Shown here in pieces: positions 30,967 to 35,287 of a DNA stretch of 49,323 nt. Source of the DNA: Rhodoferax sp. OV413 (GTDB lineage Bacteria > Pseudomonadota > Gammaproteobacteria > Pseudomonadales > Pseudohongiellaceae); NCBI GenBank assembly GCA_943330915.2, contig CALQJO020000019.1, positions 1 through 49,323 of the forward strand, in the 5' to 3' direction. A program made the position numbers and the translations under genes. The notes below the pieces were generated by a model. It made no database searches and had not been told where the DNA came from. It worked only from the letters and a program-made list of their open reading frames with translations. Each line of letters begins with the position of its first letter. Positions within the stretch are counted from its first letter, which is position 1.

Positions 30967-32391
30967 GTGTCTGAGTCAAGCATCACCCTGCCTGTGTGGG
31001 TTTTCATTTTGCTGCTGATCGCCGCTGCCTACGCAGTGCTGATGAGTGTGTTATTTCCAAGTGTGCGCTGGTATGTCAGACGCAGGCTCAATCGCGCGGT
31101 GGACAGAATCAACACCAATCTGCAGATCCGGATCCGGCCGCTGCAGCGCACACGCCGTCAGGTGCTCATCGATCAGCTGATTTTTGATCAGGATGTTATT
31201 GCCATGATCGAGCAGATGGCACGTGATGAGAACATTCCCCGTGATGTGTTGCAGCAACGTGTGCTCAGTTACGCACGTGAGATTGTGCCCTCGTTTAATG
31301 CCTACGTGTACTACCGCGCGGTCTACTGGATATCCAAAAAACTCTCACGTTTTATCTACAGGGTTCGTGTGTCGGCGGCAGATCCGGCTGGATTGAGGAA
31401 TATTGATCCGGACTCCACGGTGGTGTTTGTGATGAACCATCGCAGCAACATGGATTATGTGCTGATCAGTTATCTTGCTGCCGAACGGGTCACCTTGTCT
31501 TTTGCGGTGGGCGAATGGGCGCGTGTGTTTCCACTGGATATGCTGATTCGTGCGATGGGCGCCTTTTTTGTGCGCCGCGGATCCCAGAACCCGCTTTACC
31601 GCAAGGTACTGGAACGTTACGTGTACATGGCCACCAAAAGTGGCGTATGTCAGGCAGTATTTCTGGAGGGCGGCTTAAGCCGCAATGGGCGCCTGGGCGA
31701 GCCAAAATTGGGGTTTCTGGACTACATATTACGTAATTATGACTGGCAGACGGATCGGTCTGTGGTGTTTGTGCCGGTCAGTATCAACTATGACCGCGTG
31801 CTTGAAGATCACAACATGGTGTCATGGGAAAGCAAGGACAAACGTCTGACTGCGCGTCAGCACCTGGCAAGGCTGCGACAGTTTCTCGGCAACAATCTGT
31901 TTGTCAGCTCGCGCGTGCGCTGGTTGCGTTATGGTTACGCCAGTGTGAACTTTGGTGTCCCGCTGTCCATGCGCGAGTATTGCCGCGAAAACGGCGTCGA
32001 CTTTAATCACCTCAATAAAGAACAGCGCATCACCAGAATTGCCGAACTGGCTAACGTGTTGATGGGCGCTCTACGATATGTGATGCCCATTATCCCGGTG
32101 CCGGTGATTGCCTCCGTGTTGTTACGAGCCGGGGAGGAGTCCTTGACCTCGCTGGAGATTGTCAGCCGCAGTGACGAGTTGCTCGACCTGATGATTACCA
32201 ATGGTGCAGCCATGAAGGCAGAGGAGAAGCCACGCTCACGCACCCTGCTGAAGAGTCTGGAGTTATTGACCGCCCGCCAGTTTGTGGTGGAGGAGAACGA
32301 TCATTACCGCATCAATCCCGCGCAGCGTGTGCTGGTTGAGTACTACGCCAACTCCATTGCTCACTGGTGGCAGGTTGAAACGCGGAACTGA
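30967..32391 (+). CDS. Glycerol-3-phosphate / lysophosphatidate acyltransferase, PlsB-like
   Basis: 474 aa. The acyltransferase block I motif N-H-R-S-N-M-D-Y (HX4D), block II F-F-V-R-R-G-S and block III FLEGGLSRNGRLGEPKLG are in the right order for the GPAT family; the E-G-G-L-S-R form is typical of PlsB-like enzymes. It is about 330 residues shorter than E. coli PlsB and has an N-terminal membrane segment. It would esterify glycerol-3-phosphate or a lyso lipid with acyl-ACP or acyl-CoA. The start is GTG with CGGGA upstream. A housekeeping PlsB would probably exist elsewhere; this may be a secondary enzyme. Confidence 0.83.
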   Translation: MSESSITLPVWVFILLLIAAAYAVLMSVLFPSVRWYVRRRLNRAVDRINTNLQIRIRPLQRTRRQVLIDQLIFDQDVIAMIEQMARDENIPRDVLQQRVLSYAREIVPSFNAYVYYRAVYWISKKLSRFIYRVRVSAADPAGLRNIDPDSTVVFVMNHRSNMDYVLISYLAAERVTLSFAVGEWARVFPLDMLIRAMGAFFVRRGSQNPLYRKVLERYVYMATKSGVCQAVFLEGGLSRNGRLGEPKLGFLDYILRNYDWQTDRSVVFVPVSINYDRVLEDHNMVSWESKDKRLTARQHLARLRQFLGNNLFVSSRVRWLRYGYASVNFGVPLSMREYCRENGVDFNHLNKEQRITRIAELANVLMGALRYVMPIIPVPVIASVLLRAGEESLTSLEIVSRSDELLDLMITNGAAMKAEEKPRSRTLLKSLELLTARQFVVEENDHYRINPAQRVLVEYYANSIAHWWQVETRN

Positions 32392-32444
32392 ATGTAGATA
32401 AAGCGCCTAAATTTTCCTAGATCAATTGAATTGGCACAAGCGTC

Positions 32445-32615
32445 GGGGAGACAGGGCAGCGGCGGACTGGCCGCATCCTTTGCATTGTTGACCGGCGCTG
32501 CGCAACTCACCCTCGCGGCGTCGCCGCTCGGAGTTCGAACAGTGCTCGCGCTTTTCCGGTCAACAACGCAACGGATAAGCGCGGCCTGATTAGTCCACCG
32601 CTGCCCTGTCTCCCC
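32445..32615. repeat. Large structured palindromic element, copy A
   Basis: Outer arms GGGGAGACAGGGCAGCGG (32445-32462) and their complement (32598-32615) are perfect over 18 bases. The next stem pairs GGCCGC (32469-32474) with GCGGCC (32581-32586), then ATCC with GGAT and TTGTTGACCGG (32485-32495) with CCGGTCAACAA (32556-32566). An inner hairpin GCGGCG-T-CGCCGC tops it. The element shares conserved blocks with 34306-34486, but its variable arm blocks differ. It fills most of the 373-base gap 32392-32764. Confidence 0.85.
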
Positions 32616-32677
32616 GCCGCTCTCTCCAGAAAGATACTGAGTGTTTGAATCCCGCACGGTTAAAGGAAGCGGTTCTT

Positions 32678-32742
32678 CAGCAGGAAAAGTGTTTTGCGAA
32701 TAATCAGGCGCGCAGCGCCATGAGCAAAAACTTTTCCTGCTG
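32678..32742. terminator. Hairpin downstream of the serine hydrolase gene
   Basis: CAGCAGGAAAAG (32678-32689) pairs perfectly with CTTTTCCTGCTG (32731-32742), followed inward by TTTTGC/GCAAAA and a GGCGC-GCA-GCGCC tip. It lies 23 bases past the stop of the minus-strand serine hydrolase gene, so it may be a transcript end or a separate repeat. It is unrelated in sequence to the large elements. Confidence 0.45.
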
Positions 32743-32764
32743 GAGAGCCGCCCCCATTCGTGAG

Positions 32765-34057
32765 TTATTTCCGCTCAGTAATCGCCCCGTAAACAAGATC
32801 CTTGCTGATCGCCTGCAACTGACGCGCGTACATCAGGTTACGGTTCTGAATCATACCGATGAAGGTCAGGTTCTCAACCGGGTCAATCCAGAACCACGTA
32901 CCACCAATGCCCCACCACCAGTAACTGCCCTCACTCATCCCATTGTTTCGAGCTGGATCGGCCACAATCGCAAAGTCCACACCAAACTGGTTGCCAGGGT
33001 AACCCGGGATTTCTGCCATACCCGCCGGCAGTTGATTGGTACGCATCGTTGTCACCGACTCGGGTGACAGGATACGCACACCATTCAACTCACCATTGTT
33101 GGCCAGCATCTGGGTGAATTTGATGTAGTCACCGATGGTGGATACCAGTCCGCCACCGCCGCCAAAGAAGGTTGCCGGATCGGGATAGTCGCCGCCCAGA
33201 GCGTCCGCCGCAGCAGTCTCCTGCAGCCCGTTTGGCGTAGATTGGTACATTTTTGCAAATCGTGCACGATCATCATCGGCAACACCAAAGCCGGTATTGT
33301 CCATGCCCAGCGGCGTAAACAGACGCTCTTGCAGGAATTCTTCAAAGGTCTGACCGGACAATACTTCAACCAGATAGCCCTGCACATCCACGGATACACT
33401 GTAATGCCACAAGGTGCCGGGTTGCTGGCGCAGCGGAATACGCGCCAGCTTGTCGATCATGTCCTTGAGTGTGCCGTTGGCATCCAGAATGTTGGCTGCT
33501 ACATACATGGAGTCAACTTGCGAGCGCGAGAACAAACCGTAGGTGAGTCCACCGGTGTGGGACATCAGTTCACGTACCGTCATTTCGTGATGGGCAGGTT
33601 CGGTGACCGGGAAGCCGCCGGGGCCATCCTCAATGGCGACCTGCAGATTGGCCAGTTCAGGGATGTGGCGGGAAACAGCATCATCCAGGGTGAGTTTGCC
33701 CTCTTCAACCAGCATCATTAGCGCCACACCGGTCACCGGTTTGGTCATGGAGTAAATGCGGAACAGGGTATCTTCTGACGCCGGAATCTGGTTCTCGACA
33801 TCCTGATACCCGTAGGCATCCATGTGCACCAGTTTGCCGTCGCGCAATAGGGCGCTGACGATGCCGGACAAATTGCCTTCATCCACTGCAGCGCGCATGC
33901 CATCGGCCAGCGCTTGCACACCGGCGCTGCTGAAGCCGGCTTCTTCCGGGGTGGCGCGCTGAATTTCCTGGGCGTTCAGAGAGAGTGGAAGAATTAATGC
34001 CAGCGCGGAACCCCAGAGCAGGTGTCGCAGGCTGCTAGCCAGTGAGTACTTTTTCAT
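32765..34057 (-). CDS. Exported serine hydrolase, class C beta-lactamase fold
   Basis: 430 aa. The ATG at 34057 gives a signal peptide (basic start, hydrophobic LLWGSALALILPLSL, cut after L-N-A-Q). The catalytic S-M-T-K lies in RIYSMTKPVTGVALMML; Y-S-V is the second motif and G-I-G-G-T-W-F-W the third region. It is close in layout to 25487-26788. The reading frame stays open upstream through the structured element at 34306-34486, but that extension has no signal or ribosome site and is rejected. AGAGG precedes the chosen start. It is flanked by the two structured elements, as a single-gene unit. Confidence 0.9.
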   Translation of the reverse strand: MKKYSLASSLRHLLWGSALALILPLSLNAQEIQRATPEEAGFSSAGVQALADGMRAAVDEGNLSGIVSALLRDGKLVHMDAYGYQDVENQIPASEDTLFRIYSMTKPVTGVALMMLVEEGKLTLDDAVSRHIPELANLQVAIEDGPGGFPVTEPAHHEMTVRELMSHTGGLTYGLFSRSQVDSMYVAANILDANGTLKDMIDKLARIPLRQQPGTLWHYSVSVDVQGYLVEVLSGQTFEEFLQERLFTPLGMDNTGFGVADDDRARFAKMYQSTPNGLQETAAADALGGDYPDPATFFGGGGGLVSTIGDYIKFTQMLANNGELNGVRILSPESVTTMRTNQLPAGMAEIPGYPGNQFGVDFAIVADPARNNGMSEGSYWWWGIGGTWFWIDPVENLTFIGMIQNRNLMYARQLQAISKDLVYGAITERK

Positions 34058-34305
34058 GTCAGGCCTCTTTTGTTTTAACTTTTTTGGTTTGATTAGTGAT
34101 GCGTTTGATCCTGGCGTTCGTTGCAGGTGGTGGTTGAACCTGACGTCGAACAGTCGTTCCGGAGTGTAGCCTAGAGCATAGGGGCGGGCTACATGAAAGA
34201 AGTCAGGTTGTGGGGGATTTGAGGTGGGTGCCTTTTTGCATTGGCTGCCAGTGCGTTTCGGTAATGCGTTGAGTTTCAGGCGCGGTGTTGATTCATGAAC
34301 GTCCG

Positions 34306-34486
34306 CAACGGGGAGGCCGTGTGGCAACGGACTGGCCGCATCCTCTGACGGGTTGCCCGGCGTTGCGCAACTCGTCCTCAGGCGCTGTGCGCCTTGCGAA
34401 CTCGGACAGTGCTCACGCTGTTTCGGGCAACCCGTCAGAGGATAAGCGCGGCCTGATGAGTCTGTTACCACACGGCCTCCCCGTTG
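34306..34486. repeat. Large structured palindromic element, copy B
   Basis: Same orientation as copy A, 1865 bases further right. CAACGGGGAGGCCGTGTGG (34306-34324) pairs with its perfect complement at 34468-34486; ATCCTCTGACGGGTTGCCCG (34340-34359) pairs perfectly with 34424-34443; the tip is AGGCGC-TGT-GCGCCT. Shared blocks with A include ACTGGCCGCATCC, TGCGCAACTC, ACAGTGCTC and GGATAAGCGCGGCCTGAT. It fills much of the 534-base gap 34058-34591; the rest is the serine hydrolase promoter region. Confidence 0.85.
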
Positions 34487-34591
34487 CTCTCTCCGACTTT
34501 TGCGAGTAGGGAAGTTTGGTCATCGTGCTAAGACGTGATCTGCAGTAACATCCCGGTAGTAAGAATTTTTGCCTTGGATTTCAGGAGAGCA

Positions 34592-35287
34592 ATGATGTCG
34601 CGTTACGTGGTTACAGGTACTAACAGAGGTATTGGCCTGGAGTTTGTCAGGCAGTTATTGGCTCAGGGCCACAGCGTGGTGGCGACCGCGCGTGATCCTG
34701 ACACCGTGCCCGCCCTTCAGGCTATGCGGGGCTTGAACAGCCAACTCAGTCTTTTGCCACTGGATTTGGCTGACGAGAACAGTATCAATGCATTTGCCGA
34801 GCGGATGAGTGCCACGCCGATTGATGTACTGATCAACAATGCCGGCATCTACGGACCGCGCCAGGCCAGCCTGGGGCAGTTACGCACGGCAGACTGGGAA
34901 GAGGTGATGTTGGTAGATCTGATTGCACCCATCATGCTGACTCAGGCACTGTTGCCCGCACTGCGCCGGGGTACTGATAAGCGCATTGCCTTTTTAAGTT
35001 CCATCATGGGTTCCATCGCCGATAACAGCGGTGGCGGGGCCTACCTCTATCGCAGCGCCAAGGCCGGTCTGAATCAGGCGGTGAAATCATTGTCGGTGGA
35101 TCTGGCGAAAGAAAATTTTATCGTGTTGCCGCTGCACCCCGGCTGGGTAAAGACCGATATGGGTGGCCCCAGTGCCCAGATTGACGTGCACACCAGTGTG
35201 ACGGGTCTGCTGCAACGCATACAAACAGCCGGCGCCGCCGAGAGCGGCAAATTTCTCAACTACGACGGCAACACAATCGCCTGGTAA
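34592..35287 (+). CDS. SDR family oxidoreductase (CsgA/C-factor-like)
   Basis: 231 aa. The cofactor loop is T-G-T-N-R-G-I-G (residues 8-15), then N-N-A-G and a catalytic serine in A-F-L-S-S-I-M-G-S, and the Y-R-S-A-K dyad. Short length and the V-T-G-T-N-R-G-I-G-L-E-F start resemble the C-factor or sniffer-like group. The ATG ATG at 34592 follows AGGAG. Ten bases after its stop begins a truncated RidA-like gene, presumably a former operon partner. The substrate is unknown. Confidence 0.88.
   Translation: MMSRYVVTGTNRGIGLEFVRQLLAQGHSVVATARDPDTVPALQAMRGLNSQLSLLPLDLADENSINAFAERMSATPIDVLINNAGIYGPRQASLGQLRTADWEEVMLVDLIAPIMLTQALLPALRRGTDKRIAFLSSIMGSIADNSGGGAYLYRSAKAGLNQAVKSLSVDLAKENFIVLPLHPGWVKTDMGGPSAQIDVHTSVTGLLQRIQTAGAAESGKFLNYDGNTIAW

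What the first reader, a model, noticed from the sequence alone, without database searches (positions are those of the whole stretch)
32445..34486. Two large hairpin elements with conserved design and complementary changes in their arms
Elements 32445-32615 and 34306-34486 keep the same order and lengths. Shared blocks include ACTGGCCGCATCC, TGCGCAACTC, ACAGTGCTC and GGATAAGCGCGGCCTGAT. Between them are two variable blocks in each arm: ACAGGGCAGCGG versus GCCGTGTGGCAA (12 bases each), and TTTGCATTGTTGA versus TCTGACGGGTTGC (13 each). In each element the opposite arm carries the matching complement at the same distance. Sequence differs while pairing is preserved, which is the mark of selection for structure. 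I know no named family for it; an RNA or a folded single-stranded DNA site are both possible.
Basis: partly seen in the sequence, partly recalled or inferred. Interest (0 to 1): 0.82.

Follow-up and report, generated by a model that had tools for sequence, protein, structure and literature searches.

The report
Dispersed hairpins with interchangeable arms
Two copies of a repeated, non-coding DNA hairpin scattered between the genes of a little-known bacterium keep their folded shape while the letters of their arms change, probably because the element spreads and renews itself as a hairpin rather than as a fixed sequence.

Summary
Window 32440-32620 and 34305-34487 are two members of a dispersed hairpin family: 8 copies in the own genome, matches in 15 of 15 genomes of the genus (named records say Pseudohongiella), 13 further genomes of the family sample (28 of 99 in all) and 8 from other families. 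Typical copies have a sharply ended 25-bp outer stem, two one-sided bulges, an inner stem of about 20 bp and a conserved apical core. 50 of 61 pairs show two-sided change; 93% of cells pair, against 32-42% when partners are slid. No Rfam match.

Covariation alone does not prove selection here: at two orthologous sites the interior is inverted inside the outer arms, as DNA template switching predicts. But bulges and core stay fixed, and G.T wobbles fall mainly on the minus strand (78 v 14 in inner arms), pointing to one functional folded strand. Some paralogues match end to end with unrelated flanks, and 17 of 17 close pairs are convergent. Best reading: a REPIN/MITE-like miniature mobile hairpin, larger than a REP, mobiliser unknown. 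A host-RNA function is not excluded.

The parts
32440..32620 (+). hairpin element 1, whole stem (model positions 1-181); in some paralogues elsewhere about 12 nt to the left and 14-18 nt to the right also belong to the repeat
   Evidence: cmsearch R1 186 bits; boundaries from paralogue alignments
32440..32464 (+). element 1 outer arm, left
   Evidence: inverted repeat I1, alignment A1
32596..32620 (+). element 1 outer arm, right
   Evidence: inverted repeat I1, alignment A1
32475..32495 (+). element 1 inner arm, left
   Evidence: inverted repeat I5, 90%
32556..32576 (+). element 1 inner arm, right
   Evidence: inverted repeat I5, 90%
32496..32555 (+). element 1 conserved apical core
   Evidence: invariant columns of A1
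32577..32591 (+). element 1: two conserved one-sided bulges (AAGC, TGATT) around a 6-bp helix
   Evidence: fold, A1
34305..34487 (+). hairpin element 2, whole stem (model positions 1-181)
   Evidence: cmsearch R1 185 bits; orthologue L023 in G004
34305..34329 (+). element 2 outer arm, left
   Evidence: inverted repeat I3
34463..34487 (+). element 2 outer arm, right
   Evidence: inverted repeat I3
34340..34359 (+). element 2 inner arm, left
   Evidence: inverted repeat I4, 100%
34424..34443 (+). element 2 inner arm, right
   Evidence: inverted repeat I4, 100%
34360..34423 (+). element 2 conserved apical core
   Evidence: invariant columns of A1
34444..34458 (+). element 2: two conserved one-sided bulges around a 6-bp helix
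   Evidence: fold, A1
32662..32758 (+). a separate hairpin (family F3) beside element 1: conserved core, arms changed in the G002 orthologue with pairing largely kept
   Evidence: inverted repeat I2, 82%
30967..32391 (+). upstream gene, glycerol-3-phosphate acyltransferase-like; its stop codon ends 48 nt before element 1
   Evidence: Pfam PF19277, PF01553
32765..34057 (-). beta-lactamase-family (PF00144) gene between the two elements
   Evidence: Pfam
34592..35287 (+). short-chain dehydrogenase gene after element 2
   Evidence: Pfam PF00106

Best explanation
A family of about 205-bp non-coding miniature mobile hairpins (REPIN/MITE-like). SHOWN: many dispersed, mostly intergenic copies of fixed architecture; some paralogues alike from end to end with unrelated flanks; presence/absence differences at orthologous sites; close pairs convergent in every listed case; arms that change while staying complementary; interior inversion at two sites; wobble bias to the minus strand. 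INFERRED: the recognised form is the folded single minus strand. A protein acting in trans reads the core and the two one-sided bulges and needs a stem of fixed length but not of fixed sequence. After insertion, template switching and recombination within and between hairpins renew the arms, flip the interior and exchange modules; copies that lose the fold drop out. Whether the mobiliser is a Y1/HUH transposase, as for REPs, is not known.
For: Matches in 15 of 15 genus genomes, 28 of 99 in the family sample, 11 of 145 in the order sample. Of 8 paralogue pairs aligned, 4 end near the stem on both sides with unrelated flanks. At the L004 locus G000 has a +/- pair, G001 only one, G002 only the other, G006 none. 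17 of 17 pairs within 700 nt are convergent among the 150 best genus matches. A.C:G.T 78:14 in inner arms (50 copies v 5) and 125:54 in outer arms (65 v 23), 122 distinct copies. Pairing drops from 96% to 47% and then 18-39% at the outer end of the 25-bp stem; 99 of 111 copies have at least 20 of 25 Watson-Crick pairs. Interior inverted at the element-1 site in G002 and at the L002 site in G006. Distant relatives keep the core and, where the outer part exists, the bulges, on unrelated near-perfect arms.
Against: No transposase gene was seen bracketed by the element: 16 Y1_Tnp loci gave no full copy, and Y1_Tnp is in 45 of 56 relatives, carriers or not. No target-site duplication established: the one near-clean empty site keeps the element's left end and is better read as a loss. 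Of the 8 paralogue pairs, 2 extend into flanking REPs, 1 extends to the left, and 1 involves a chimeric contig end. Many sites are shared between species, and most listed copies are not in close pairs (116 of 150). No lagging-strand bias in one complete genome (15 v 13). Sharp paralogue borders could also arise by gene conversion onto existing copies.
Confidence: 0.55

Rival explanations
1. A host-useful structured RNA element: a large hairpin at gene 3' ends (mRNA protector, terminator-like or small RNA), with stem pairing held by selection on the RNA.
For: 52 of 104 classifiable copies lie between convergent genes, against 68 of 319 gaps, and 77 of 104 follow a same-strand gene, median 47.5 and 64 nt after the stop in the two classes. 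Very stable fold. Wobbles biased to one strand. Persistence at orthologous sites.
Against: The wobble-tolerant strand is the minus strand, antisense to the nearest upstream gene in the commonest contexts. Tandem sites show only 25 v 14. No conserved promoter or T-run in the flank profile; the scan of the window region finds no more than shuffles do. The interior is inverted in situ at two sites, which would reverse the RNA. Copy number and occupancy vary and distribution is patchy.
Confidence: 0.22
2. The arm covariation is purely mutational: replication template switching and recombination keep any long palindrome near-perfect while it drifts, and nothing selects the fold.
For: Interior inversion inside the outer arms; rarity of wobbles on both strands (92 A.C or G.T cells of 1827 in inner arms); compensated changes already seen among copies alike at 90% or more of pairs (3 v 8 single in outer, 7 v 6 in inner arms). 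Published: template switching creates and maintains stems and inverts loops (PMC8794818, passages). Two other hairpin families in the same genomes also change arms and keep pairing.
Against: One-sided bulges of 4-5 nt and the apical core are conserved while the arms turn over, although arm correction should erase bulges. The A.C over G.T bias needs a strand-specific cause. The outer stem keeps its length (stem ends are set by the model).
Confidence: 0.15
3. An attC-like site of an unknown tyrosine recombinase: the bottom strand folds, structure rather than sequence is recognised, and sites lie 3' of genes.
For: Minus-strand wobble bias, one-sided unpaired bases, position after genes.
Against: No RYYYAAC/GTTRRRY boxes (motifs recalled) at the stem ends (profile); copies dispersed over the genome with no long array. 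Integrase genes were not searched for.
Confidence: 0.03

Closest known systems
REPINs / BIMEs (inverted REP doublets, RAYT-mobilised)
   Same: Dispersed, extragenic, inverted doublets in a fixed orientation, conserved blocks with intervening arms in which length and hairpin capacity matter and compensatory changes are common; singlets and doublets (PMC3116915, abstract and passages).
   Different: One unit here is a complete hairpin of about 181 nt plus tails, not 20-40 bp. No GTAG or CGTC tag, no full copy beside 16 Y1_Tnp loci, and the pair spacer is not conserved. 5 of 111 copies, all in G009, are enclosed by inverted REP-like repeats.
Long terminal-inverted-repeat families flanking RAYT-like genes (TIRs)
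   Same: Inverted repeats unrelated to GTAG REPs, moderately abundant in several species, tied to Y1 transposases (PMC3733652, abstract and passages).
   Different: The 16 Y1_Tnp loci looked at are not flanked by this element. The published TIR sequences were not compared.
Bacterial MITEs such as ERIC and Correia elements
   Same: Short non-coding repeats with stem-loop potential (PMC2229807, title and start of abstract only; the named families are recalled).
   Different: Those are, as recalled, recognised by conserved sequence; here much of the stem sequence turns over and bulges, core and stem lengths are kept. No target duplication established.
Integron attC sites
   Same: Folded bottom strand, structure over sequence, 3' of genes (recalled).
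   Different: No R boxes at the stem ends, no long array.
Rfam structured RNA families
   Same: Covariation-supported secondary structure.
   Different: No family reaches its gathering score in the window; the two hits at E up to 10 are microRNA models far below threshold.

Membership tests
REP/REPIN | palindromic unit of 20-40 bp | tested here: not met
   stem model is 181 positions
REP/REPIN | GTAG or CGTC tag at one end of the hairpin | tested here: not met
   no such block in the flank profile of 111 copies
REP/REPIN | inverted doublets over-represented | tested here: met
   17 of 17 pairs within 700 nt convergent among the 150 listed matches; G009 3 close pairs v 0.15 expected
REP/REPIN | associated Y1 transposase gene flanked by the repeat | tested here: not met
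   16 Y1_Tnp loci (two of them in G037), no full copy; the single strong hit is a GGGGACGGAGG hairpin. Not every Y1_Tnp gene of the genus was looked at.
MITE | terminal inverted repeats, no coding capacity, many dispersed copies | tested here: met
MITE | target-site duplication and clean empty sites | tested here: inconclusive
   the one near-clean empty site retains the left end and is bounded by 8-nt direct repeats, so a deletion is likelier
MITE | autonomous partner with matching ends | not tested
   no systematic search for a protein-coding element with these ends was made
attC | RYYYAAC and GTTRRRY boxes at the stem ends (recalled) | tested here: not met
   flank and stem-end profile
intrinsic terminator | run of T directly after the stem | tested here: not met
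   right-flank profile, scan of the window region
Rfam RNA family | score at or above the gathering score of a family | tested here: not met
   0 matches in the window; E up to 10 gives two microRNA models far below threshold
functional RNA | expressed transcript | not testable with these tools
   no RNA-seq available

The most novel reading that the evidence does not exclude
A class of mobile DNA whose identity is carried by a fold and not by a stem sequence. Stem arms are disposable and are continually renewed by template switching, so that copies in one genome share on median only about a third to two thirds of their outer-arm letters yet remain recognisable to one strand-specific enzyme. 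At least two further hairpin families in the same genomes (F2, F3) seem to follow the same rule.
Probability: 0.25. Interest if true: 0.8.

Novelty: new variant of a known kind. Interest (0 to 1): 0.58.

Why it matters
Two-sided covariation is the usual proof of a functional RNA structure. This family shows covariation far above shuffled and slid controls, together with signs (interior inversion, module exchange) that DNA-level template switching may make much of it. It is a natural test bed for separating selection from mutation in hairpin evolution: many copies, many at sites shared between species, with an internal control in the conserved bulges. If it is mobile it extends REPIN-like elements to units of about 200 bp recognised by shape.

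Tried and rejected
Rfam at gathering score and at E up to 10: nothing. Lagging-strand targeting: 15 v 13 in G009, rejected (replichores from 20 samples of GC skew). Y1_Tnp presence as the explanation: not diagnostic. An 8-nt TSD at the L004 locus: reinterpreted as the direct repeats of a deletion because the left end of the element remains. 'Element follows a same-strand gene' as proof of a 3' RNA: weak, because convergent gaps satisfy it by definition and tandem gaps give 25 v 14.

Literature: of eight paper searches, six looked for the core letters or for like elements; searches returned 0 papers, the others 8, 12 and 3. I saw their listings and starts of abstracts, and passages of PMC3116915, PMC3733652 and PMC8794818; no description of this family was among what I saw. 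The library lacks most subscription papers. One search lists 15 of 112 papers that name Pseudohongiella; none was opened.

Rows dropped or spoiled: of 71 full-length copies two were left out of A1, L039 (fold-back chimera at a contig end) and L048:1677-1873. The chimera re-entered as L266:5804 in A2 (one of 122 rows) and in the first pair. Rows with L029 are spoiled by a one-column misalignment of the outer arm and are not used. In one search two tally keys mixed class and letter counts; one search is used instead. One search left 7 of 111 copies unclassified.

Full report
CHECK. The two elements lie at window 32440-32620 and 34305-34487. The arms are complementary: outer 93% in both, inner 90% and 100%. 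The window holds no Rfam family.

FAMILY. blastn finds 8 copies in the own genome and matches in 14 of 56 genomes, all 14 in the same genus. Named hits of an exact-pattern scan are Pseudohongiella MAGs, strain LSUCC0112, UBA6173 and one MAG called only Gammaproteobacteria; contig lengths tie G001 to LSUCC0112 and G014 to a Pseudohongiella MAG, hence the genus name. A covariance model R1 was built from 69 copies (181 positions, 61 pairs). It matches in 15 of 15 genus genomes, 28 of 99 in the family sample, 13 of them outside the genus, and 11 of 145 in the order sample, 8 of them outside the family; three of these eight (G150, G160, G219) show only the inner part. One search gives 5-47 matches per genome, but matches are not copies: the own genome has 14 matches for the 8 copies seen by blastn, at least in part because a palindrome is also matched on its other strand. 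An exact core pattern occurs in 6 of 369 genomes of the class sample, 16 times in one of them; it does not match the own genome.

ANATOMY. From the outside inward: short, weakly conserved tails; a 25-bp outer stem; a GACC/GGTC helix; a one-sided bulge (TGATT); a 6-bp GGCCGC helix; a second bulge on the same side (AAGC); an inner stem of about 20 bp; and a conserved apical core with its own small hairpin. The outer stem ends sharply: in 111 copies pairing is 96% at the last base pair, 47% one step outside and 18-39% beyond; 99 of 111 copies have at least 20 of 25 Watson-Crick pairs, and 3 of 111 extend outwards (the ends are set by the model). In more distant genomes the core sits on entirely different but near-perfect arms, with the bulges where the outer part exists; some are inner hairpins alone.

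COVARIATION. 93.2% of 4205 cells form standard pairs, against 68.5% shuffled and 31.6-42.0% slid. 50 of 61 pairs have two-sided changes (41.5 shuffled), and the covariation score is 0.600 v 0.152 shuffled and at most 0.102 slid. The structure came from the same alignment, which favours the unslid version, but the gap is large. Many pairs show all four Watson-Crick types.

WHICH STRAND. Over 122 distinct copies, inner arms have 78 A.C mismatches but 14 G.T; 50 copies have more A.C and 5 more G.T. Outer arms have 125 v 54; 65 copies v 23. A.C on the plus strand is G.T on the minus strand. In the inner arms G.T on the plus strand is no commoner than other mismatches (14, against 64 spread over eight kinds). 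So the minus strand, as defined by the core, behaves like the strand that folds. A strand-biased mutation process is an alternative. The copies are related, so the sign-test p values (2e-10 and 8.5e-6) are too small. A weaker bias in the outer arms is what one would expect if the core flips relative to them (inference).

SELECTION OR MUTATION. Three facts warn against reading the covariation as selection alone. (1) At the orthologous site of element 1, with the same gene ends and the same ATTGGCACAAGCGTCGGGGA flank, the interior is inverted in G002 relative to G000 and G001; the outer arms have also diverged. At the L002 site G006 has the same outer arms as G001 with the interior, bulges included, inverted. 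(2) Outer and inner modules seem to travel separately: copies in one genome can be 0.88-0.92 alike in the outer arm and 0.52 in the inner, and L007 has outer arms that match each other poorly. (3) Two other hairpin families in these genomes, F2 and F3, also change arms while keeping core and most pairing; F3 lies in the window at 32662-32758. Template switching during replication predicts arm homogenisation and loop inversion (PMC8794818, passages). Against a purely mutational origin: bulges and core are kept while arms turn over, and the wobble bias is strand-specific. Among the closest copies (90% or more of pairs the same) single changes are about as common as compensated ones (8 v 3 outer, 6 v 7 inner); compensated ones dominate at greater distance (80 v 25 outer and 41 v 18 inner at 65-80%). 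That fits a two-step process under either cause.

MOBILITY. Eight paralogue pairs were aligned. Four are alike across the element, from at most about 12 nt before to about 14-18 nt after the stem, with unrelated sequence beyond; two, in G009, extend into inverted REP-like repeats on both sides; one, in G012, extends to the left; one involves a chimeric contig end. Occupancy differs at orthologous sites: at the L004 locus G000 has a +/- pair, G001 only one, G002 only the other, G006 none, and G014 short remnants (L273). The G006 site keeps the left end of the element between short direct repeats, so it is better read as a deletion than as a pre-insertion site. At the L002 site G004 carries a different hairpin (F2) instead. 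Among the 150 best genus matches, the part of the list shown, all 17 adjacent pairs within 700 nt are convergent; between 700 and 2500 nt it is 9 convergent, 4 tandem, 2 divergent. In G009, 28 listed copies include 3 close pairs (0.15 expected), and 15 of 28 lie in 270 kb (largest simulated cluster 12 in 3000 runs). 5 of 111 copies, all in G009, are enclosed by inverted GGGGACNNAG repeats. No full copy lies beside any of 16 Y1_Tnp loci.

POSITION. Of 111 distinct copies, 104 could be classified with ORFs of 100 aa or more: 52 convergent, 25 tandem in the element's direction, 14 tandem against it, 13 divergent; gaps in the longer loci were 68 of 319 convergent. The gene calls are crude (longest-ORF choice), the loci were chosen for holding elements, and convergent sites say nothing on orientation. 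In the window element 1 follows an acyltransferase gene and element 2 lies between a beta-lactamase-family gene and a short-chain dehydrogenase gene that diverge.

READING. The best single account is a REPIN/MITE-like miniature mobile hairpin recognised by fold and core on one strand, with arms renewed by template switching. What is missing is the enzyme, a clean insertion, and any transcript data. It works like a REPIN in several ways (extragenic, inverted doublets, compensatory arms; PMC3116915, passages), but it is not a REP: size, end tag and RAYT association fail. I file it as a new variant of a known kind.

Noticed in passing
window 32662-32758; L052 4118 ff.: A third hairpin family (F3) beside element 1, with a conserved core (AAAAGTGTTTTGCGAATAATCAGGCGCG...); arms in the G002 orthologue are changed yet largely complementary.
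   Followed up: partly
L006 1747, L268 698, L247 1433, L277 502 and others (9 distinct places in held loci): Another hairpin family (F2) with core GATCTGCGTCGARGAACAATCAGA and changing arms; in G004 it occupies the site where G000 has the main element.
   Followed up: partly
L330 (G000:C85), L336, L338, L339, L340, L343: Around a Y1_Tnp (RAYT-like) gene, REP-like GGGGACGGAGG hairpins recur about every 600-1300 bp, with small genes between them in L338, the one locus whose ORFs were listed.
   Followed up: partly
L341 3686-3746 (G007:C1): A near-perfect palindrome that begins GGGGACGGAGGG, a compact REPIN-like unit.
   Followed up: no
G009:C1 1.82-2.09 Mb: 15 of 28 listed copies lie in 8% of a complete genome, 0.15-0.42 Mb beyond the switch of GC skew.
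   Followed up: partly
L283-L301 (other Gammaproteobacteria): In most of these loci the same core is preceded by a small CTTTG..CAAAG-like hairpin and an A-rich AAAG..CCAAA stretch; looks like a wider relative of the family.
   Followed up: no
L007 1481-1663 (G000:C17): Looks like a natural chimera: its left outer arm resembles the G004 orthologue's, its right outer arm does not, so the outer stem is broken.
   Followed up: partly
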